From: Kutzneria buriramensis | GTDB lineage: Bacteria > Actinomycetota > Actinomycetes > Mycobacteriales > Pseudonocardiaceae | Direction of reading: 5' to 3' | Assembly (NCBI RefSeq): GCF_003387475.1 | Contig: NZ_QUNO01000003.1 | Location: 496,001-560,000, forward strand | Length of the DNA: 64,000 nucleotides | In this document: piece after piece, positions 23,477 through 62,104 of the stretch | How the letters are laid out: each line of letters begins with the position of its first letter | Position numbering within the stretch: the stretch's first letter is position 1 | Notes under the pieces: model-generated | Databases searched by the model: none | The model's input: the letters and a program-made list of their open reading frames with translations, nothing else | What the model was told of the DNA's origin: nothing | Position numbers and translations under genes: made by a program

Positions 23477-24214
23477 TCATGCCAGCAGGTGCCGCAGATA
23501 GCGGTCCGGTTCGGCGAGGAACTCCCGGGTCAGCCGCACCGGCAGCGCCGAGTCGAAGTCCACCCGCTCGATCGCGCCGTCCTCGCCCACCTCCAGGATC
23601 GCCGCGCCCGGCAGGGACAGCAGGATCGGCGAGTGCGTGGCCACGATCAGCTGGCAGTCCTGCTGCGCGAGATCCGCCATTCGCGCCACCAGCGCCAGGC
23701 AACCGCGCACTGACAGCGCCGCCTCCGGCTCGTCCAGGATGTACAGGCCATTAGGCCCGAAACGGTGCGTCACCAGATCCAAAAAGGACTCGCCGTGCGA
23801 GCGCTCATGCGGCGACCGGCCGCCGTAGTGCTGGATCGAGTCGTGCCCCAGCCGCTCGATCTCCGTCGCCACGTTGTAGTACGACTCCGCCCGCAGGAAG
23901 AACCCCGTGCGGGGCTTGCCGATCCCCCGGCTCAGCGTCAGGTAGTCCCCCAGCGACGACTCCGTCGCCCGCGTCGCGAACCGGAAGTCCTGGCTCCCGC
24001 CCTCCGGGTTGAACCCGGCGGCGACCGCGATCGCCTCCACCAGCGTCGACTTGCCGGCCCCGTTCTCGCCGATCAGGAAGGTGACGCCGGCCCGGAGGTC
24101 GAGCCCCTCCGACTCGGCCAGCCACCGCACCACCGGCAGCGTGAAGGGATACCGACCCGTCGACGGCTCGTCCAGCCGCACCCGCCGAATGAACGAACCA
24201 CCCACGGCTCCCAC
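23477..24214 (-). CDS. AAA/ABC-type ATPase of unknown function
   Basis: 245-aa soluble ATPase of the RecF/SMC-like AAA group: Walker A GENGAGKST (near residue 50), a Q-loop-like FRFATRATE segment, signature-like region HGESFLDLV, Walker B LYILDEPEAALS and switch His in VATHSPILLSLPG. Such short proteins are widespread in actinobacteria, with no assigned role. The GTG start is 1 bp after the Uma2 stop, so the two are probably co-transcribed; a second GTG three codons in is a possible start. Confidence 0.82.
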   Translation of the reverse strand: MGAVGGSFIRRVRLDEPSTGRYPFTLPVVRWLAESEGLDLRAGVTFLIGENGAGKSTLVEAIAVAAGFNPEGGSQDFRFATRATESSLGDYLTLSRGIGKPRTGFFLRAESYYNVATEIERLGHDSIQHYGGRSPHERSHGESFLDLVTHRFGPNGLYILDEPEAALSVRGCLALVARMADLAQQDCQLIVATHSPILLSLPGAAILEVGEDGAIERVDFDSALPVRLTREFLAEPDRYLRHLLA

Positions 24215-24215
24215 T

Positions 24216-24824
24216 CTATGGGGTCAACCTGACCAGGGCATCCAGGTCGAGCCGCACCGGGAACGGCACCGACGCGGTGAACACACCGGCGACACCGCCA
24301 TTGTCCTGATAGCCGAACTCACCGGCCAGATGGCAGTCGACCAGCGAGACGGGCTCGTCGACGTCGATGATCCAGTAATGCGGGATCCCCGCGTCGGCAT
24401 ACTCCCCGCGCTTGATGACGTTGTCCATCCGCACGGAGCCCCGCGACACGATCTCGACGATCACCAACACCTCGGAGGCACGCAACAGCGTGCCCTCGGC
24501 GTCGGATCGTTCGTAGGCCGCCGAGTCGACGATGATCAGGTCTGGCCTGCGCACATTGCCCGGCTCATCCGGCGCTGCCAGCTCAAGGTTGATGTCGATG
24601 TCCGGGATAGCGCCGAGGCCAGTGGGCAGCTGAGGCGCCAGCTGGATGATCAGCTGCGACGTCGTGACCATGTGCCGGGACTTCGGCGAAAGGCTCATCA
24701 CGAGCCAGCCCTCCTGAAGTTCCCAGCGGTGTTCGGTGTCTTCGGGCAGGCGCTCATACTCGGCAGTCGTCAGGGGATGATCGGAATTCGGCGGCAATTG
24801 CCAGCCCAGAGGCGACGCAGTCAC
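24216..24824 (-). CDS. Uma2/DUF820-family PD-(D/E)XK-like protein
   Basis: 202 aa. The order of motifs fits Uma2: N-terminal MTAEYERLP-like LTTAEYERLP, ELQEGWLVMS, RRPDLIIVD with the catalytic Asp, LVIVEIVSRGSVRMD with Glu, and KRGEYADAGIPHYWIID. It resembles restriction-like endonucleases, but its biological role in actinobacteria, where many paralogues exist, is not established. GTG start with GAGGAG five bases upstream. It forms a two-gene unit with the downstream ATPase. Confidence 0.85.
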   Translation of the reverse strand: MTASPLGWQLPPNSDHPLTTAEYERLPEDTEHRWELQEGWLVMSLSPKSRHMVTTSQLIIQLAPQLPTGLGAIPDIDINLELAAPDEPGNVRRPDLIIVDSAAYERSDAEGTLLRASEVLVIVEIVSRGSVRMDNVIKRGEYADAGIPHYWIIDVDEPVSLVDCHLAGEFGYQDNGGVAGVFTASVPFPVRLDLDALVRLTP

Positions 24825-25229
24825 AGCAACTCCTCACGTCTGTCCGAAGCCTGCCACACCATGATCGCCCACCCCCCGTCCGAGCCGGCGGTTCCCTCGC
24901 CCGGACACACTGAATACCGACTTCCGGGCCACCCTCGTCACCGAACGTGACACCGGCCGAGGTGGGCCGCCGTCGGCGGCCGGTCAGCTCTACCGGCCCC
25001 CGGCAGCACGGTCCGCCGAGACCTGCACCACACCCGGCGGGCCCGAATGCAGACTGGAAACACTCCAAATAAACCCGCCGCCGCACACATTTTCGAACTA
25101 GGTAGTTCCGGCCATACCTAGGGTTATTTCGGGATGGCCGTACCCGTAACGCGCCCAATACGCTACTCACGGTGAGACCGGCCACGGGTCCCGCCTACCC
25201 GAAAACTCCCCGTTCCCGCGGAGGCGCGC
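24825..25229. other. 405-bp divergent intergenic region
   Basis: No credible gene. It holds the Uma2 promoter (minus) and the DoxX-like promoter (plus). A hairpin GGCCGCC-GTC-GGCGGCC lies at 24966-24982, and the segment from about 25060 to 25160 is clearly richer in A/T than its surroundings, containing a perfect palindrome at 25095-25108. Confidence 0.5.
25095..25108. promoter_or_regulatory. Palindrome in AT-richer promoter segment
   Basis: GAACTA-GG-TAGTTC is a perfect dyad, followed at once by CATACCTAGGGTTATT. It lies about 120 bp upstream of the DoxX-like gene and is a candidate operator. Confidence 0.4.
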
Positions 25230-25727
25230 GTGTCCGAAGTCATGCACACGATCACAAGAGTCGAGAGCACAATACACTCCTGGCTGGGGCGAAACAGCGT
25301 GCGACTGCTCCGGATCAGCATGGGATCGATCATTCTCCTCTTCGGTTTCCTCAAGTACTTCCCGGGCGTCAGCCCGGCCGAGCACATGGTGGAGACGGTC
25401 AGCCGGATGCTGACCCTGGGCCTCATGCCGGACCGGCTGGTGATGGTCGGATTCGCCACCGTTGAATGCGTGATCGGACTGTCGGTGATCACCGGAGTGG
25501 GCCTCAGACTGGTGATATACCCGATGGCGCTATGGGCGGTCGGCATTCTGCTGCCACTGGTTCTGATGCCGGGCGAACTGTTCAGCGGCCCGGACCACAT
25601 GCCCAATCTCGAGGGTCAGTACGTGCTCAAGGACGTCATTCTGCTGACGGCGACAATGGTGATCGCGGACGCCGCGGTCCGGGCGGGACGCCCCCGCACG
25701 TACGGCGCGTCCGGCACGTGGCAGTGA
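25230..25727 (+). CDS. DoxX/YkgB-like small membrane protein
   Basis: 165 aa with four membrane helices (LLRISMGSIILLFGFLKYFP; LVMVGFATVECVIGLSVIT; LVIYPMALWAVGILLPLVL; VILLTATMVIADAAVRA). The FGFLKYFPGVSPAE and NLEGQYVLKDVILL blocks resemble the DoxX/DUF417 group, linked in some bacteria to redox or chlorine stress. GTG start is tentative. It ends right at the operator of the next gene. Function unproven. Confidence 0.75.
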   Translation: MSEVMHTITRVESTIHSWLGRNSVRLLRISMGSIILLFGFLKYFPGVSPAEHMVETVSRMLTLGLMPDRLVMVGFATVECVIGLSVITGVGLRLVIYPMALWAVGILLPLVLMPGELFSGPDHMPNLEGQYVLKDVILLTATMVIADAAVRAGRPRTYGASGTWQ

Positions 25728-25728
25728 C

Positions 25729-25774
25729 GTCAACCGAAGGTTGACAGCCGTACCAGGGTCAACCTAACGTTGAC
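25729..25774 (+). promoter_or_regulatory. Promoter with two inverted repeats ahead of HTH/Clp-N gene
   Basis: GTCAACC-GAA-GGTTGAC (25729-25745) and GTCAAC-CTAAC-GTTGAC (25758-25774) share half-sites 29 bp apart. The first carries -35 TTGACA (25741-25746) and the second -10 TAACGT (25765-25770), with an 18-bp spacer. The inferred transcript starts at the ATG (25778), so the mRNA is leaderless and a protein bound here would block polymerase. Confidence 0.7.
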
Positions 25775-25777
25775 GGC

Positions 25778-26497
25778 ATGACCACACCGATCCGACTCGA
25801 CGACATGATCAACCTGGTCGCCCATCTCCACCCGGACGGCGACCCGCTGGCCCGGCTGGCCGAGGCGGTGCAGCAGGCGGACCGCCTCGGCGAGCTGTCC
25901 GACCACCTGGTCGGACACTTCGTCGACCAGGCCCGGCGGGCCGGCGCCACCTGGACCGACATCGGCCGCAGCATGGGCGTCACCAAGCAGGCCGCGCAGA
26001 AGCGCTTCGTGCCCAAGGACGAGCCGATGGACTGGGGCCCGTTCAGCCGCTTCACCGACCGCGCCCGCCGGGTCGTGGCGCAGTCCCAGACCGAGGCCCA
26101 GACCGCCGGCCACGGCTACATCGGCACCGAGCACATCGCGCTGGCGCTGATGTCGCAGCCGGAGGGCCTGGCCGCGCAGGCCCTGGCCGCGCAGGGCGTC
26201 ACCGAGGAACAGGTCCGCGCCGCGGTGAAGGTCGCGGCGCCGGCCGGCGGTGAGGCAGTCACCGGGCACATCCCCTTCACGCCGCGAGCGCGCAAGGTGC
26301 TGGAGCTGTCCGTACGCGAAGCGCTGCGCCTGGAGCACAACTTCATCGGCACCGAGCACGTGCTGCTCGGCCTGCTGGCCGAGGGCGACGGCATCGGCGC
26401 CAAGGTGCTGACCGGTCTCGGCGTGCAGGCCGCCGAGGCCGAACGCTGGATCCTGGCGAAGTTCAGCGAGTTGCAGCGAGAGCGTCAGGGAGAGTGA
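25778..26497 (+). CDS. HTH plus double Clp-N domain protein
   Basis: 239 aa without an ATPase module. Residues about 30-75 form an HTH-like segment ([25 protein letters not shown]). The rest holds two Clp-N repeats: [33 protein letters not shown] and [33 protein letters not shown] (pieces cited to locate). This looks like the substrate- or adaptor-binding domain of ClpC placed on a DNA-binding protein. It overlaps convergent hisA by 35 bp. Autoregulation through the palindromes just upstream is likely. Role in proteostasis is inference. Confidence 0.85.
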
Positions 26498-53242: not shown

Positions 53243-54457
<1,215 letters not shown>

Positions 54458-54488
54458 CGGGCTCTCCCCTCCGCCACGTAATAGGGGC

Positions 54489-54503
54489 AACCAACGATTG
54501 GTT
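54489..54503 (-). promoter_or_regulatory. Operator-like palindrome upstream of P450
   Basis: AACCAA-CGA-TTGGTT is perfect, 32-46 bp upstream of the P450 ATG, overlapping the expected promoter. TetR-like geometry, but no regulator gene adjoins. Confidence 0.5.
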
Positions 54504-54583: not shown

Positions 54584-57500
54584 TCAGCCCAAGCAACCCG
54601 GTCCCAACAGGGCCTTGAGGTCGCCCATCAGTGACGGTGACGGGTCCACCCGCAGCCCGTCGTCCAGTCGCAGCATGGTGCCGCGCCGGCCGTTCATCAG
54701 GTTCAGGTGCACCTCGGTGGAGCCCGGGTGCGACTTGAGGACCTCCTTGAGCTGGCCCACCAGCGGCCGGGTGCACTTGGCCGCGTGCATGGTCAGCTTC
54801 ACCGGCATGCCGCTGGCCGCCATCTCCAGGTCCGGCAGCGCCAGGTCGTTGGCGATCAGCGAGATCCGGTCGTCGCGCTTGGCGATGCGGGCCTTGACCA
54901 GCACGATCGCGTCCTCGGCGACGCTCATCCCGACCACCGAGTAGGTCTTCGGGAAGAACAGCACCTCGATGCCGCCGGCCAGGTCCTCCAGCTGCGCGGA
55001 CGCCCACGACTCGCCGGACTTGTTGATGCGCCGGGTCACCGAGGCCAGGATGCCGCCGACCGTCACCTGCGCGCCGTCGGGGAGGTTGCCTTCGAGGATG
55101 GTGGCGATCGCCGTGTCGGACTGGGCCTCCAGCACCCGCTCCACGCCGTTGAGCGGGTGGCCGGACACGTACAGGCCGAGCATCTCCCGCTCCAGCGTCA
55201 GCTGGTGCTTGGAGTCCCACTGCTCGTCGGGCACCTTCACGTCGAACACGCCGCCGGCGTTGTCCTCGCCGTCGTCCCCGCCGCCGAACAGGTCGAACTG
55301 GCCGACCGCCTCGGCCTTCTTGGTGTCCATGATCGCGTCGACGGCCTCGATGTGCACCATGTGCAGGCCCTTGCGCGGGTGGCCCAGCGAGTCGAAGGCG
55401 CCGGCCTTGATCAGCGACTCGATGACCTTCTTGTTGCAGGCGTTGGCGTCGACCTTGCGCAGGTAGTCGGAGAAGTCGACGAACGCGCCCTTCTGGGTGC
55501 GGGCCGCCACGATCGAGTCGACCACGTTCGCGCCGACGTTGCGGATCGCGCCCAGGCCGAACCGGATGCTGTCGCCGACCGGCGCGAACTCGCGCATCGA
55601 GTCGTTGACGTCCGGCGGCAGCACGGTGATGCCCATCTTGCGGCACTCGGCCAGGTAGATCGCGGCCTTGTCCTTGTCGTCGCCGACCGAGGTGAGCAGG
55701 CCGGCCATGTACTCGGCCGGGTAGTTCGCCTTCAGGTAGGCGGTCCAGTACGAGACCAGGCCGTACGCGGCCGAGTGCGCCTTGTTGAAGGCGTAGTCGG
55801 CGAAGGGGACCAGGATCTCCCAGAGGGTCTTGACGGCGTCCTGCGGATAGCCGTTGTCCAGCATGCCCTTCTCGAAGCCGGCGTACTCCTTGTCCAGGAT
55901 CTCCTTCTTCTTCTTGCCCATCGCGCGGCGCAGCAGGTCGGCCTGTCCCAGCGTGTAGCCGGCCAGCTTCTGCGCGATGGCCATGACCTGCTCCTGGTAC
56001 ACGATCAGGCCGTAGGTGGTGCCGAGGATGTCCTTGAGCGGCTCCTCCAGCGCCGGGTGGATCGGGGTGATCTCCTGCTGCTTGTTCTTGCGCAGCGCGT
56101 AGTTCGTGTGCGACTTGGCGCCCATCGGGCCCGGCCGGTAGAGCGCGCCGACCGCGGAGATGTCCTCGAAGTTGTCCGGGCGCATCAGCCGCAGCAGGTC
56201 GCGCATGGGCCCGCCGTCCAGCTGGAACACGCCCAGCGTGTCGCCCCGGCCCAGCAGCTCGTAGGTCTTCTTGTCGTCCAGCGCCAGGCTGTCCAGGTCC
56301 GGCGGGGTCTTGCCGTTGAGCTTGATGTTCTTCATCGTGTCGTCGATGACCGTGAGGTTGCGCAGCCCCAGGAAGTCCATCTTCAGCAGGCCGAGCGTCT
56401 CGCAGGTCGGGTAGTCGAACTGCGTGATGATCGAGCCGTCCTGCGGCCGCTTCCACACCGGGATGTGGTCGGTCAGCGTCTCCGCGGACATGATCACCGC
56501 GCAGGCGTGCACGCCGGCGTTGCGGATCAGGCCCTCCAGGCCGCGGCCGGTGTCGATGATCTCCTTGACCTGCGGGTCCTGCTCGTAGAGGGCGCGGATC
56601 TCGGTGGCCTCGGCGTAGCGCTTGTGCTGCGGGTCGAACAGGCCGTTGAGCGGGATGTCCTTGGCCATCACGGCCGGCGGGTAGGCCTTGGAGATCCGGT
56701 CGGCGACCGCGTAGCCGGGCTGGCCGTAGAGCACGCGGGCGGAGTCCTTGATCGCCGCCTTCGCCTTGATGGTGCCGAAGGTGATCACCTGGGCGACCTT
56801 GTCCTCGCCCCACTTCTCGGTGACGTAGCGGATGACGTCGCCGCGCCGGCGCTCGTCGAAGTCGATGTCGATGTCGGGGGGGCTGACGCGGTCGGGGTTG
56901 AGGAACCGCTCGAAGATCAGGCCGTGGGCCAACGGGTCCAGGTCGGTGATGCCCATCGCGTACGCGATCAGCGCCCCCGCGGCGGAGCCACGGCCCGGGC
57001 CGACCCGGATGCCGTTGTTCTTGGCCCAGTTGATGAAGTCGGCGACCACGAGGAAGTAGGCCGGGAAGCCCATCTGCAGGATGACGCCGATCTCGAACTC
57101 CACCTGCTTGCGGTGTTCCTCGTCGATGCCGTCGGGGAACCGGCGGTGCATGCCGGCCCACACCTGCTCCTTGAAGTACTCGTCCTCGGTCATGCCCTCG
57201 GGGATCGGGAACCGCGGCATCAGGTTGTGGAACTTGAACATGTCGGTGGTGTCGACCTTCTCGGCCACCAACAGCGTGTTGCGGCACCCCTCCTGCCAGG
57301 GGTCCGAGGAGTCGATCGCGCGCATCTCGTCCGGCGACTTCAGGTAGTAGCCCGTGCCGTCGAACTTGAAGCGGGTCGGGTCCTGGAGCGTCTTGCCGGT
57401 CTGCACGCACAGCAGCACGCCGTGCGCGTCCCGGTCCGACTCGTAGGTGTAGTGCGAGTCGTTCGTCACCACGAACGGCAGGTTGAGCTGCTTGGCCACG

Positions 57501-58120
57501 TTGACCAGGCCGTCGCGGACCCGGCTCTCGATCTCGATGCCGTGGTCCATCAGCTCCACGAAGAAGTTGCCGTCCCCGTAGATGTCCTTCCAGTCCGAGG
57601 CCGCCTGCAGGGCCTCCTTCTCCTGGCCGAGCCGCAGCCGGGTCTGCACCTCGCCCGACGGGCAGCCGGTGGTGGCGATCAGGCCCTTGGAGTTCTCCGC
57701 CAGGAGCTCCCGGTCCATCCGCGGCCACTTGCCCAGCTGGCCGTCGATGCTCGCGTAGCTGGAGGCCCGCATCAGGTTGTGCAGGCCCTCGTTGCTGGCC
57801 GCCCAGATCGTCTGGTGGGTGTAGGCGCCGCTGGCCGACACGTCGTCGTTCTTCTGGTGCGGCTCGCCCCAGGTGATGCGCCGCTTGTCGTGACGGGAGC
57901 CCGGCGCCATGTACGCCTCGATGCCGATGATCGGCTTCACCCCGGCGGCGGTGGCCTGCTTGAAGAAGTCGTAGGCCCCGTACATGTTGCCGTGGTCGGT
58001 GATCGCGGCCGCCGGCATGCCCAGCCGGTTGCACTCGGCGAACATGTCCTTGAGCTTGGCGGCCCCGTCGAGCATCGAGTACTCGGTGTGCACGTGCAGG
58101 TGCACGAACGAGTCGGACAT
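54584..58120 (-). CDS. dnaE1: DNA polymerase III alpha subunit
   Basis: 1178-aa replicative polymerase. Order: PHP domain ([19 protein letters not shown]), palm with [11 protein letters not shown] and the catalytic PDIDIDFDE, fingers, HhH, OB fold ([20 protein letters not shown]) and C-terminal domain. Full length for DnaE1. ATG 58120 begins the PHP motif, with GGGAGG nine bases upstream; the 26-residue upstream extension is non-conserved. Essential housekeeping gene. Confidence 0.97.
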
Positions 58121-58345
58121 TGTAGGCGGCCTCCCCTGGGCTGAACGACTAGCGCCCCTATCTTGCCTCCTCTCCCCGGCGGAGCCGGCACCAGCCACGC
58201 GGACTACTTTCCGCTACTTCCGGGTAGCAGAAAGCCGCAGGTCAGGGCGGGGCATTCGCGACTGTCGGCGAACGGGCGGATTTCCCGGGCGATCTGGGTG
58301 CGGACTCCCTTCCGACCGGGAAGCGTCCCCGGCGAGGCTGCGCCC

Positions 58346-58564
58346 ATGGACGACCTGATCTGGATCTTGGAAGAGAAGAGCAACCACAACGAGCTCGACC
58401 TAGAAGACCTCTGGGCGATGACCGAGCCCCACAACCACAACGAGGTGTCGATCGAGGACCTGCTCTGGCCGATGCAGGACCCATCGACCAACCACAACGA
58501 GCTCGAGGACCTGATCTGGCCGCTGACCGAGCCCAACAACCACAGTGAGTGCGAGTCCCTTTGA
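58346..58564 (+). CDS. 72-residue acidic NHNE/Trp-repeat peptide
   Basis: Four imperfect repeats of about 16-19 residues: NHNE at 13-16, 30-33, 49-52 and NHSE at 65-68, each preceded by an acidic-leucine-tryptophan block (DDLIWIL, EDLWAM, EDLLWPM, EDLIWPL; Trp6, 23, 41, 58). Strongly acidic, one Cys (69), no signal peptide or membrane helix. ATG has GAGG eight bases upstream. Its end overlaps the TPR gene by 16 nt (GTG 58549) or 4 nt (TTG 58561). I recognise no family. It may be a multicore RiPP precursor or a multivalent ligand of the TPR protein; both are inference. Confidence 0.72.
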   Translation: MDDLIWILEEKSNHNELDLEDLWAMTEPHNHNEVSIEDLLWPMQDPSTNHNELEDLIWPLTEPNNHSECESL

Positions 58565-59421
58565 CCACGGCCGACCTGCTCCGCGCCGCCCGCCGCCTCT
58601 TCGACGAGGGGCGGCCGGCGGAGGCCCTCCGGCCCGCGTCGGCGGCGCTCGCCACGGTCGACGGCGACTCGCCCCGAGCGGCGATCATCCATGTGGCGCT
58701 GAGCGAGATCCACGAGCGCCTCTCCCGATACGACGACGCGGAGCGCCACGCCCGGGAGGCGGTCCGCCTGGCGACGGGCCGGTCGCGGATCCACGCGCTG
58801 GCGGCGCTGGCGGTGGTGGAGCGGGTCCGTGGCCACTACGACCGCGCGGAGGAGCGCTATCGCGAGGCCCTGGGCCTGGCGACCGACGAGAAGGCGGCGC
58901 TGCTGTGCGGGCTGGGCGTCGTCTACAAGGACGCTCGCCGCCACGACGACGCCGAGACCGCCTACCGACAGGCCCTCGACCTGATCGGCCCGGACGAGCC
59001 GGCGGCGGCGAGCGTCTGGCACAACCTGGGCGGCCTCGACCACGCGCGCGGTCGATACGCGGAGGGCGAGCCGCACGCGCGTCGCTCGGTGGCCCTCCGT
59101 GAACGGGCGCTCGGCCCGGATCACCCGACGGTGGCGGCCGATCGGGCGGCGCTGGCGTCGCTGCTCGCCGGCCAGCGACGGTTCGACGAGGCGACGACGT
59201 TGTACGAACAGGCGCTGGACGTCTTCGAACGGGTCTACCCGCCCGACCACTACGACTTCGCGGTGACGTACAACGACCTCGGCGTCGTCCTGGCGGCGCA
59301 GGGCCGGACCGCCCGGGCGAGGGACCTGTACGAGAAGGCGCTCGCGATCAAGCGCCGCCTCCTCGGCCCCGACCACCCGGACACGGCCCGCACCGTACGG
59401 AACCTGGCCGCCCTACGGTGA
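58549..59421 (+). CDS. Kinesin-light-chain-like TPR protein
   Basis: 290 aa, almost entirely TPR helices. The C-terminal half has the 42-residue TPR_12 repeats with LGPDHP-T and LYEQALDVFERVYPPDHYDFA/LYEKALAIKRRLLGPDHPDTA patterns. No catalytic or DNA-binding domain. GTG 58549 or TTG 58561 both overlap the repeat peptide gene, so the two are translationally coupled. Kinesin-light-chain TPRs are known to bind tryptophan-acidic peptides, which the upstream repeats resemble; a direct complex is my inference. Confidence 0.85.
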   Translation: MRVPLTTADLLRAARRLFDEGRPAEALRPASAALATVDGDSPRAAIIHVALSEIHERLSRYDDAERHAREAVRLATGRSRIHALAALAVVERVRGHYDRAEERYREALGLATDEKAALLCGLGVVYKDARRHDDAETAYRQALDLIGPDEPAAASVWHNLGGLDHARGRYAEGEPHARRSVALRERALGPDHPTVAADRAALASLLAGQRRFDEATTLYEQALDVFERVYPPDHYDFAVTYNDLGVVLAAQGRTARARDLYEKALAIKRRLLGPDHPDTARTVRNLAALR

Positions 59422-61050
59422 CTTGAGCTGCACCAGCACCGGCCCGGTGCGCTGACATGCCTGCCCGCACTGGGTTTCCAGCGTGCAGCACAGCGAACAG
59501 ACGGCCCCGCCGTGGTGCACGCAGTCGACGATGTCGGGCAGCTCGTACGGGTCGTCGCACACCTGGCACTCGAGCGCGGCGGTGAGGTCGGTGGCCTCGG
59601 AATCGGGGCCTGACACCAGGTTCGGCCGCGCGAGGTAGTACTTGCCGCCGGTCAGCCGTGCGGTCACCGGCACGGCGATCATGGCGACGAGCAGCGCGAT
59701 GAACGGGCTCCAGGCGGCGGCGACCTCGCCGAACGCGCCGAAGTACGCCACCACCGACACGACCGATGCCAGCACCATGGAGCCGAATCCGACGGGGTTC
59801 ACCGCGTACAGGTAGGCCCGCTTGAACTCGACGTACGGCGGGCTCCAGCCGAGCGGCTTGCAGATCACCAGGTCGGCGACGACGGCCCCGATCCACGCGA
59901 TGGCGACGTTGGAGTAGAAGCCGAGGATGTTGTTCAGGAACGCGAACGCGCCGAACTCCATGAGCGCCAACGCGATGCCGCAGTTGACGAGCACGTACCA
60001 GGCGCGGCCGGGGTGCCGGTGCAGGACGCGGGAGAAGAAGTTGGCGAACGACAGCGACCCGGAGTAGGCGTTGGTGGTGTTGATCTTGATCTGGGAGACC
60101 ACCACGAACAGCGCCGCGAGCGGCAGCGTGACGGCGCCGAGCGCGGGCCGCACGGCCTCCACGTAGGGGGCGATCGGCTCCAGGACGGCGGACTGTCCGA
60201 TCGCCCCCAACGCACAGAACGCCAGGAACGCTCCACCCAACTGCTTGAGCGCCCCCAGCACCACCCAGCCGGGCCCGGCGGCGATCACGGCCGCCCACCA
60301 GGCCCGCCGGTTGGCCTCGGTCTTCGCCGGCATGAACCGCAGGTAGTCGGCCTGCTCGCCGATCTGCCCGATCAGCGACAGCGCGACGCCCGCGCCGAGC
60401 CCGACCCCGGTCAGCGACAGGCCGCCGCCGAACGACGTGAACTGGCCGAACCGCTCCGGGTGCACCACCAGCACGACCACGAACGGCAGCACCAGACCGA
60501 GCAGCCAGATCGGCTGCGTCCACACCTGCATCCGGGCCAGCGCGCGCATCCCGAACAGCACGAACGGCAGCACGATCAGCGTGGTCAGCAGGTAGCCCAG
60601 CGCCAGCGGTAAGCCGAAGGCCAGCTGGAACGCCTGGGCCATGATCGACCCCTCCAGCGAGAAGAAGATCACCGTGAAGCTGGCGTAGATCAGCGACGTC
60701 AGCGTGGACCCGAAGTAGCCGAAGCCGGCGCCCCGCGTGAGCAGGTCCATGTCGACGCCGTAGCGGGCGCAGGCGGTGGCGATCGGAATTCCGGTCAGGA
60801 AGATGACCACCGCGGCGATGCCGATGGCCAGCGCCGCCGACTGGAAGCCGTGCAGCATCACGATGCTCGCGCCGATGGCGAAGTCGGCCAGGTAGGCGAT
60901 GCCGCCCAGCGCGGTGCTGGCCACCGCGAACGGCGACCAGCGGCGGAACGAGTTCGCCGCGTAGCGCAGGGAGAAGTCCTCGCTGTCCTCGTTGGCCGCC
61001 AGCCACGCGTAGCGGCGCTTGGGGCCCGTCTTCACGTCGGTGACCGTCAT
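59413..61050 (-). CDS. NCS1-type purine/cytosine permease with Cys-rich C-terminal domain
   Basis: 545 aa: a twelve-helix NCS1 transporter (opening SFRRWSPFAVASTALGGIAY; SQIKINTTNAYSGSLSFANF midway) followed by a cytoplasmic tail of about 70 residues with nine Cys: CQVCDDPYELPDIVDC, then CSLCCTLETQCGQAC. The tail looks like a metal-binding zinc ribbon and is known in some actinobacterial NCS1 proteins. ATG 61050 is used because the upstream frame is only antisense to the next gene. Substrate probably a nucleobase or related compound. Its end overlaps the TPR gene by 9 bp. Confidence 0.88.
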   Translation of the reverse strand: MTVTDVKTGPKRRYAWLAANEDSEDFSLRYAANSFRRWSPFAVASTALGGIAYLADFAIGASIVMLHGFQSAALAIGIAAVVIFLTGIPIATACARYGVDMDLLTRGAGFGYFGSTLTSLIYASFTVIFFSLEGSIMAQAFQLAFGLPLALGYLLTTLIVLPFVLFGMRALARMQVWTQPIWLLGLVLPFVVVLVVHPERFGQFTSFGGGLSLTGVGLGAGVALSLIGQIGEQADYLRFMPAKTEANRRAWWAAVIAAGPGWVVLGALKQLGGAFLAFCALGAIGQSAVLEPIAPYVEAVRPALGAVTLPLAALFVVVSQIKINTTNAYSGSLSFANFFSRVLHRHPGRAWYVLVNCGIALALMEFGAFAFLNNILGFYSNVAIAWIGAVVADLVICKPLGWSPPYVEFKRAYLYAVNPVGFGSMVLASVVSVVAYFGAFGEVAAAWSPFIALLVAMIAVPVTARLTGGKYYLARPNLVSGPDSEATDLTAALECQVCDDPYELPDIVDCVHHGGAVCSLCCTLETQCGQACQRTGPVLVQLKSP

Positions 61051-61180
61051 GGCTTCCGACCGTAGGAAGCGTCTTTTACGGCCAGGTTCCAACGCTGTAA
61101 CCCCACCTGGGCAGGTGATCTTCCCCGTCGCGGCGCACCGGGACGGACGGTGCGGAAGGCGACCGGGTAGCGTGCCAGGC

Positions 61181-62104
61181 GTGGCCGTGCCGGATCCTGT
61201 CGACTTCCGTCTGCTCACGCTGCTCGCCGAGATGGGGCGGGCCGCGGTGCACGACGTGGCCGCGCGTCTGGGCATGGACCCGCGGGAGGCCGCCGCGCGG
61301 CTGGTGGCGCTGTCCGCGTCCGGCATGCCGCTGCTGGTCGGCGTCGAGTGCGACCCGAACGGGATCAGGGCGGCGATCGCCGCCGCGAGCCGGCAGCAGC
61401 AACAGCAGCAGTGGCAGGGATATCCGCCGCAGTACGGCGCTCCCCAGCAGCAGATGCCGCCGCAGTACCAGCAGCAGCACCCCCAGCCGCAGTACGCGCC
61501 GCCGCAGCCCCAGTACGCGCAGTCGCCGCAGAGCGTGCCGTTCCCCGCGCAGCAGCCGCCGGCCGCTCCGCCGCAACAGCAGCCCGCGGCACAGCCTCCG
61601 GCCGGTGGCACCTGGGGACCGCCGCAGACGTCCGCGTGGGCGCGGGGCGACCAGCAGACGGTCAAGGCCGAGCCCGTGCCGCCGCAGAAGTTCACCGTCG
61701 GCAGCACGCAGCAGACGGTCGGCCTGGAGGGCGAGCAGCTGTCCATCCAGCTCGTCGAGGTCGTCGACCCGGCCGACTTCCTGTTCACCGCCGCCGGCTA
61801 CCGGCTCCAGGAAGGTGAGCGGGCGGTCGTCGTGCACACCGAGCTCACCAACCGCGGCAGCGTGCCGTTCTCCTCGCTGCCCGACCTGTACCTGCTGCTG
61901 GTCGCCGCCGACGGGCAGACGGTGTCCAAGGCGCCGGTGTCGCTGTCGTCCCGGCCGCCGCACCGCATCGGCGTGCAGCCCGGCGAAACCGCCGGCGGCC
62001 ACACCGTCTACGTGCTGCCGGACGCCACGGAGATCACCTCCGTGCGCTGGAGCCCCCGCCCCGACGACCCCGCCCACTCCCTCACCTGGGAGATCGAGAA
62101 CTAA
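61181..62104 (+). CDS. wHTH protein with Q/P-rich linker and DUF4352-like beta domain
   Basis: 307 aa. N-terminal 60 residues form an AsnC/Lrp-like winged helix (LLTLLAEMGRAAVHDVAARL). A low-complexity linker (about 70-165) follows, with a polyQ run and repeated PQ/QPQYAP motifs. The C-terminal 130 residues are beta-rich (LSIQLVEVVDPADFLFTAAG; VVHTELTNRG), resembling extracellular-type DUF4352 domains. GTG 61181 is 7 nt after TAGCGT, a probable leaderless start. Function unknown; a DNA-binding head with a long flexible linker is unusual. Confidence 0.8.
   Translation: MAVPDPVDFRLLTLLAEMGRAAVHDVAARLGMDPREAAARLVALSASGMPLLVGVECDPNGIRAAIAAASRQQQQQQWQGYPPQYGAPQQQMPPQYQQQHPQPQYAPPQPQYAQSPQSVPFPAQQPPAAPPQQQPAAQPPAGGTWGPPQTSAWARGDQQTVKAEPVPPQKFTVGSTQQTVGLEGEQLSIQLVEVVDPADFLFTAAGYRLQEGERAVVVHTELTNRGSVPFSSLPDLYLLLVAADGQTVSKAPVSLSSRPPHRIGVQPGETAGGHTVYVLPDATEITSVRWSPRPDDPAHSLTWEIEN

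What the first reader, a model, noticed from the sequence alone, without database searches (positions are those of the whole stretch)
58346..59421. NHNE/Trp-acidic repeat peptide coupled to a kinesin-light-chain-like TPR protein
Seen: 72-aa acidic peptide with four repeats pairing an (E/D)(E/D)L-x-W block with NHNE, overlapping a TPR-only gene. Known: kinesin light-chain TPRs bind short Trp-acidic peptides; multicore RiPP precursors (for example graspetides) also show acidic repeats. Inference: either a self-contained multivalent peptide-TPR pair or a RiPP-like precursor whose TPR partner scaffolds an enzyme encoded elsewhere. I know of no described family with these repeats.
Basis: partly seen in the sequence, partly recalled or inferred. 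Interest (0 to 1): 0.8.

Follow-up and report, generated by a model that had tools for sequence, protein, structure and literature searches.

The report
Repeat peptide paired with TPR protein
Next to its DNA polymerase gene this large-genome actinomycete carries a tiny repeat peptide read together with a helical peptide-binding-type protein, an apparently undescribed gene pair that recurs in several actinomycete families and looks like a peptide signal with its receptor, though what it does has not been tested.

Summary
In detail: 58346-58564 encodes a 72-aa peptide with four repeats, overlapping (TTGA) a 286-aa TPR-only gene. It is coding (GC3 0.92) and has a two-repeat orthologue at the same place in a congener. 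Searching by the TPR protein uncovered an apparently undescribed family in five actinomycete families and on two named Streptomyces plasmids. The constant element is not Trp-acidic but N-H-[NSAC]-[EQ], mostly followed by hydrophobic residues, in 1 to 7 copies. TPR loci keeping at least 4 of 5 signature residues (H154, G158, H161, R163, D194) have the peptide upstream in 22 of 27 cases, the others in 1 of 11; without the loci that defined the signature, 4 of 6 against 1 of 11. Export routes linked to the pair vary: MFS transporter (10 of 27, once fused to the TPR), C39-peptidase ABC transporter (3), Sec-like signal on the peptide (3). None is linked in the window. Best reading: an NHxE peptide bound by a cognate TPR receptor, working like Bacillota Rap-Phr but with a kinesin-light-chain-type TPR. 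Main rival: multicore natural-product precursor with a TPR adaptor. Trp-acidic binding is not supported. Binding and function are inferred, not shown.

The parts
58346..58564 (+). 72-aa repeat peptide (P0001), four repeats, ATG start, stop included
   Evidence: orthologue in G004
58334..58337 (+). GAGG, Shine-Dalgarno-like, 8 nt before the ATG
   Evidence: read; GAGG 9 nt before the ATG in G004
58382..58393 (+). NHxE motif 1 (NHNE)
58433..58444 (+). NHxE motif 2 (NHNE)
58490..58501 (+). NHxE motif 3 (NHNE)
58538..58549 (+). NHxE motif 4 (NHSE)
58561..59421 (+). TPR-only protein (P0002, 286 aa, fifteen helices in the model; TTG start overlapping the peptide stop, alternative GTG at 58549)
   Evidence: AlphaFold2 model mean pLDDT 97.3, helices only; family signature 5 of 5
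54584..58198 (-). neighbour, not a part: DNA polymerase III alpha subunit
   Evidence: same neighbour in G004 and G003 by eye
59413..61788 (-). neighbour, not a part: open frame holding a multi-helix permease, NCS1-like by eye only
   Evidence: no Pfam hit at 1e-6 for 59416-61050; same neighbour in G004 and G003 by eye

Best explanation
It is a peptide ligand and its cognate TPR protein. SHOWN by sequence: the peptide carries copies of an NHxE epitope, its gene overlaps the TPR gene, and both belong to a family in which this epitope and a set of TPR residues tend to occur together. INFERRED: (1) the TPR superhelix around helices A4-A6 (K123, H154, N155, G158, H161, R163, D194) holds the NHxE stretch; (2) the peptide is normally secreted, by an MFS exporter, a C39-peptidase ABC exporter or its own Sec signal depending on the lineage, trimmed to short NHxE peptides, taken up again and bound by the cytosolic TPR protein, which then acts on an unlinked target, as Rap/Phr and other RRNPP systems of Bacillota do; (3) several epitopes per chain give several signal units or avidity. 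In the window only the ligand-TPR pair is present; export would need an unlinked transporter, or the pair works inside the cell.
For: Peptide and TPR are the only constant partners. TPR loci with at least 4 of 5 signature residues: NHxE ORF within about 2.6 kb upstream on the same strand in 22 of 27; other TPR loci 1 of 11 (p = 6e-5; the seven g27 paralogues first had only about 1.5 kb upstream and were checked again with 2.6 kb, 0 of 7). The signature was defined on 21 of these loci; on the 17 others it is 4 of 6 against 1 of 11 (p = 0.03). A count that does not use the signature: 16 of 25 TPR loci against 1 of 96 background stretches, and two or more motifs in one ORF 12 of 25 against 0 of 96. 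Of the 14 loci brought in only by the TPR profile A3, 10 have the peptide; of the 11 among them with the signature, 10. G910, G889 and G891 were found after NHCE had been seen in G618: 3 of 3. The seven g27 paralogues differ at G158, H161, R163 and D194. In G618, G889, G891 the peptide has a basic start, a hydrophobic stretch and [TA]EA before a short (G)IRIANHCEP tail, and its frame overlaps the TPR frame, the layout of an RRNPP propeptide. In L097-L099 the TPR gene adjoins a C39-peptidase ABC transporter and most peptide repeats carry [IV]xAG. RRNPP criteria: PMC10075063 (passages); tandem pheromones: PMC11343458 (abstract, outline, passages).
Against: No binding, secretion or regulation was tested; no complex was modelled. 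The window peptide has no secretion signal by hydropathy (SignalP not available) and no exporter among its neighbours. No HTH or other output domain, and no constant target gene. The 18 family-specific TPR residues are not significantly enriched in the A helices (9 of 18 against 90 of 226 tested, p = 0.45). In g27 whole repeats, spacers included, are under purifying selection (45 codons, dN/dS 0.087), which also suits a payload in the spacers. Elsewhere selection is weak: window-G004 0.51 over 33 codons, L091-L125 0.56, L091-L124 0.84, L125-L126 1.2. Five signature TPRs fail the upstream test: G538b (two-copy NHAE peptide on the other strand), G096 (NQHSE peptide only), G132a (remnant downstream), G003 (none), G806 (NHAE frame 6 kb away, downstream). 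Many loci are close kin, so the p values are only indicative.
Confidence: 0.46

Rival explanations
1. Multicore peptide natural product (RiPP-like). NHxE is a recognition tag repeated beside each variable core; the TPR protein docks the precursor to an exporter or to maturation enzymes, some encoded elsewhere.
For: Spacers alike within a lineage and different between lineages; MFS transporter in 10 of 27 signature loci, fused to the TPR in G538b; nitroreductase/SagB-type dehydrogenase after the TPR gene in L091 and L124; three P450 genes around the L093 peptide and MFS-TPR gene; C39 ABC transporters in three g27 loci; hairpin-like inverted repeats between peptide and TPR gene, seen by eye only, in L143, L091, L124.
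Against: No maturation enzyme is constant; one peptide is only 18 aa (L143); Sec-like peptides with NHCE in the short tail; no RiPP-precursor family among Pfam or NCBIfam hits, where the only peptide hits were sub-cutoff (DUF5908, AvrD, DUF3248, Phage_lysis, PRK06687).
Confidence: 0.33
2. Intracellular pair: the peptide is a built-in regulator, scaffold or inhibitor of the TPR protein and never leaves the cell.
For: In the window, G004, G312, G885a, G878, G883, G910, G132a and G409 I saw no exporter or secretion signal beside the pair, by eye in the gene lists; the two frames overlap in window and G004.
Against: 16 of 27 signature loci have a linked export route of one of three kinds; G806 has an MFS gene too, without a nearby peptide.
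Confidence: 0.15
3. Kinesin-light-chain-like Trp-acidic recognition.
For: The 14 best solved-structure sequence matches of the TPR are kinesin light chains (E 1e-29 to 4e-22); Trp in each of the four window repeats.
Against: No [LM][ED]W[ED] core in the three peptides tested; Trp absent from 16 of 20 peptides, NHxE shared instead. The motif is recalled.
Confidence: 0.03
4. Chance open frame or non-coding repeat.
For: None beyond small size.
Confidence: 0.02

Closest known systems
RRNPP/RRNPPA peptide quorum sensing (Rap-Phr, NprR-NprX, PlcR-PapR, AimR-AimP) of Bacillota
   Same: Small propeptide gene directly beside a 250-500 aa TPR receptor; three relatives here have a Sec-like signal; tandem pheromone copies are known in Phr (PMC11343458).
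   Different: Actinomycetota; the TPR resembles kinesin light chain; no HTH; NHxE epitope; MFS or C39 ABC genes in many relatives; window peptide has no signal. Homology to RRNPP receptors beyond TPRs was not tested.
FxSxx-COOH system of actinomycetes (TPR protein FxsT; passages of PMC7159879)
   Same: Short variable peptide plus a TPR protein; P0002, P0005 and P0008 hit NF040586 FxSxx_TPR weakly (68, 84, 96 bits against a cut-off of 300).
   Different: No FxSxx C-terminus in P0001; no radical SAM gene noticed among its neighbours; score far below cut-off.
Multicore RiPPs with SagB-type dehydrogenase, P450 or C39 exporter
   Same: Repeated small precursor, transporter and occasional maturase-like neighbours.
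   Different: No constant maturase, no known precursor family, none beside the window pair.
Kinesin light chain TPR with Trp-acidic cargo peptides
   Same: TPR sequence type.
   Different: Ligand motif not met.

Membership tests
RRNPP peptide quorum sensing (criteria as in PMC10075063) | propeptide of 10-100 aa | tested here: met
   72 aa in the window; of the 20 peptides, 18 entries are 18-92 aa (G132 entered only in part), two are longer (117, 141)
RRNPP peptide quorum sensing (criteria as in PMC10075063) | propeptide secreted by Sec (PptAB for some) | tested here: not met
   window peptide: best 12-residue hydropathy -0.09 in the first 42 aa, no K/R in the first 9; only G618, G889, G891 look Sec-like. 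SignalP not available
RRNPP peptide quorum sensing (criteria as in PMC10075063) | receptor of 250-500 aa with TPRs | tested here: met
   286 aa, TPRs only
RRNPP peptide quorum sensing (criteria as in PMC10075063) | genes directly adjacent | tested here: met
   TTGA overlap
RRNPP peptide quorum sensing (criteria as in PMC10075063) | mature peptide binds the TPR protein and changes its activity | not testable with these tools
   needs binding and reporter assays
FxSxx-COOH system | C-terminal FxSxx in the peptide and TPR score above the NF040586 cut-off | tested here: not met
   peptide ends NNHSECESL; 68 bits against 300
Kinesin light chain Trp-acidic pair | [LM][ED]W[ED] core (recalled) | tested here: not met
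   0 hits in window, G004 and G132 peptides
RiPP | precursor beside a modifying enzyme | tested here: inconclusive
   direct neighbours are dnaE and a permease; a P450 (53243-54490, Pfam) lies beyond dnaE and a like frame is kept in G003, which lacks the peptide (by eye); unlinked enzymes cannot be excluded
RiPP | modified peptide product | not testable with these tools
   needs mass spectrometry

The most novel reading that the evidence does not exclude
This is a peptide-code communication family of Actinomycetota: NHxE pheromones, carried as one to seven copies, read by a dedicated kinesin-light-chain-type TPR receptor, with three different export solutions (MFS, once even fused to the receptor; C39 ABC; Sec). 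It would be an RRNPP analogue in a phylum whose signals, according to PMC10075063, are typically small molecules.
Probability: 0.37. Interest if true: 0.87.

Novelty: new variant of a known kind. Interest (0 to 1): 0.73.

Why it matters
If true, it gives a testable peptide ligand, a receptor and candidate contact residues in antibiotic-producing actinomycetes, where my searches of the held papers found no peptide-TPR signalling described. Even if it proves to be a multicore natural product, the NHxE-TPR signature makes these small genes findable in any genome.

Tried and rejected
Peptide searches alone reach only close kin: 2 of 7 genus genomes; 16 of 297 family genomes at E up to 1, of which G000, G004 and G132 stand above noise; 4 of 297 with the g27 peptide at E up to 0.01, three of them g27. 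In plasmids: one weak Rhizobium hit, none, and for the seven-repeat peptide only its own record plus five weak hits. The TPR scan of named genome contigs gave 36 generic TPR loci. Plasmid hits H9, H32, H34, H36 (H32 has no annotation there) hold no NHxE ORF. Nine large TPR hits L065-L073 were sequence controls (at most 6 of 18 signature residues) but were not checked for peptides. G396, G642 and G096 C26 matched A3 but lack signature and upstream peptide. PADLOC: TPR-protein models for the two TPRs tested, nothing for the three peptides and the MFS. Literature searches found no description of this family in what was listed; PMC7794033 (decRiPPter) has no tetratricopeptide, TPR, MFS or SagB in its main text (term search). 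PMC9765709: one passage. Sub-cutoff DUF5908 scores of the g27 peptides were taken as chance. Groove enrichment failed. Organism names of G handles are not known, and guesses are left out.

Full report
WHAT IS THERE. The window peptide (58346-58564, 72 aa) and the TPR gene (58561-59421) share the four bases TTGA, TPR start and peptide stop. The peptide has four units of 16-19 residues, each an acidic Leu/Trp block followed by NHNE, NHNE, NHNE, NHSE. Its codon-position GC (0.58, 0.26, 0.92) is that of a gene in this frame. The pair is on the + strand between dnaE and a permease-like frame, both on the - strand.

ORTHOLOGUES. In the genus, 2 of 7 genomes have the peptide and 3 of 7 the TPR gene. 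G004 has the same gene order with a 40-aa peptide of two units and a TPR 68% identical. G003 has the TPR at the same place without the peptide and with a stop inside the aligned stretch.

THE FAMILY. Searching by the TPR (P0002, then profile A3 of eight TPRs) found relatives in families f1, f19, f20, f21 and f22. Hits above threshold, and how many of these genomes hold a family TPR (signature): class 10 of 394 genomes, of which 8 family, G396 and G642 generic (an earlier class search with P0002 gave 6 of 394); g71 3 of 199, all three; f20 3 of 35, of which one genome, G538, with three loci; g69 5 of 15, all; f19 4 of 53, all. In f1, one search gave 20 of 297 at 1e-20, generic TPRs and signature-less g27 paralogues included. 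Only 5 to 11 candidates per genome were scored in the searches of 199 genomes or more, so absence there is weak. Named records: Streptomyces sp. NBC_01334 plasmid NZ_CP130719.1 with two cassettes and Streptomyces sp. 3211 plasmid NZ_CP020040.1 with seven repeats. In the (incomplete) PLSDB gene table one of the three peptides is listed, as a hypothetical protein.

THE MOTIF. In 20 peptides (51 motif sites; the NQHSE-only peptide gives none; near-identical L096 left out) the letters are N, H, then N 30, S 18, A 3, then E 38, Q 11, D 2; the next three positions are V, I or L in most sites. N, H and the choice at the next two places were the search criterion, so only the proportions and the hydrophobic run are findings. 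Trp is in 4 of the 20. Peptides with NHCE (G618, G889, G891) and a three-repeat one (G910) came later. Repeat number changes by whole units: 4 and 2 in the window's genus; 5 and 3 in g27; in g69 3 and 3 (L091, L124, like surroundings) and 2 and 1 (L125, L126, like surroundings).

ASSOCIATION; an NHxE ORF (up to 300 aa, NH[NSA][EQD]) within about 2.6 kb upstream on the same strand in 16 of 25 TPR loci against 1 of 96 background stretches, taken from the same loci and the window., 38 TPR loci, motif widened to NH[NSAC][EQD] after G618: 22 of 27 with at least 4 of the 5 signature residues, 1 of 11 without; with the narrower motif three of the 22 are lost. The signature was chosen on 21 of the 27; on the 17 loci not used for it the figures are 4 of 6 and 1 of 11 (p = 0.03). 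The seven g27 paralogues were rechecked with full upstream DNA: 0 of 7. Exceptions with signature and no upstream peptide: G538b (divergent two-copy NHAEVVL peptide), G096 (NQHSE peptide), G132a (remnant downstream), G003, G806 (NHAEVVLV frame 6 kb away). Loci are related, so p is indicative.

TPR PROTEIN. Pfam TPR repeats; AlphaFold2 gives an all-helical model at pLDDT 97.3; nearest solved sequences are kinesin light chains. Eighteen residues separate 21 family rows from 16 generic TPR rows; H154, G158, H161 and D194 are in all 21 (R163 in 20). Four of the five signature residues lie on helices A5-A6, but the 18 as a set are not enriched in A helices (p = 0.45). In the seven g27 paralogues four of the five are changed.

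SURROUNDINGS OF RELATIVES. MFS transporter in L092, L093 (fused to the TPR), L094, L095, L096, L121, L127 by Pfam, in three plasmid cassettes by annotation, and after the TPR in L120, which lacks a nearby peptide. C39-peptidase ABC transporter adjoining the TPR gene in L097, L098, L099, and after it in L092, where it may belong to a neighbouring graspetide-like cluster. Sec-like peptides in three f19 loci, without SignalP. Nitroreductase/SagB-type dehydrogenase in L091 and L124; three P450 genes in L093. Other neighbours were judged by eye.

SELECTION (NG86). g27 repeats 0.087 over 45 codons; g27 short peptides L098-L099 0.15 over 32; window-G004 0.51 over 33; L091-L125 0.56 over 57; L091-L124 0.84 over 81; L125-L126 1.2 over 33; L104a-L096 and L097-L098 short peptides had no synonymous change, only 5 and 4 amino-acid-changing ones.

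MECHANISM. A recurring ligand motif with recurring TPR residues, interchangeable export routes and no constant enzyme points to a ligand-receptor pair rather more than to a biosynthetic pathway. RRNPP systems supply the model (criteria and mechanism in passages of PMC10075063; tandem pheromones in abstract, outline and passages of PMC11343458; PMC9765709 listing and one passage). Binding, export of the window peptide and any output are inference. I do not file it as an RRNPP member: the secretion criterion was tested and not met for the window.

NOVELTY. No Pfam or NCBIfam family reached its cut-off for the peptides tested, no PADLOC family matched three of them, and the paper searches named in Tried and rejected listed no description; most subscription papers and bioRxiv are outside that library.

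Noticed in passing
L092 4340-8088: C39 ABC transporter, then a small peptide ending its leader-like part in GISGG with two Cys behind it, then an ATP-grasp ribosomal peptide maturase (best NCBIfam TIGR04187, below cut-off): a probable graspetide-type cluster beside the NHxE cassette.
   Followed up: partly
L100 7043-9403 and L058-L064: In genus g27 a TPR gene, an NHNQ peptide start fused to a TPR C-terminal piece, and a second TPR gene lie in tandem (G132); the other g27 loci seem to keep only the C-terminal piece and the second, signature-less TPR.
   Followed up: partly
L105 3493-4053: The annotated hypothetical protein WP_079408346 lies antisense over the seven-repeat NHSE frame; the annotation may be on the wrong strand.
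   Followed up: partly
window 53243-54490: Cytochrome P450 next to dnaE, with a like frame at the same place in G003 and G004; no sign that it belongs to the peptide pair.
   Followed up: partly
L104 10051-10581: 176-aa protein overlapping the end of the TPR gene of one Streptomyces cassette, without a Pfam match at 1e-4.
   Followed up: no
L102 8462-9427: G003 TPR begins MDDLL, as the window peptide begins MDDLI, as if a deletion had joined peptide start and TPR start; not tested.
   Followed up: no
window 24001-26000: Lowest GC of the 2-kb steps (0.659 against about 0.71).
   Followed up: no
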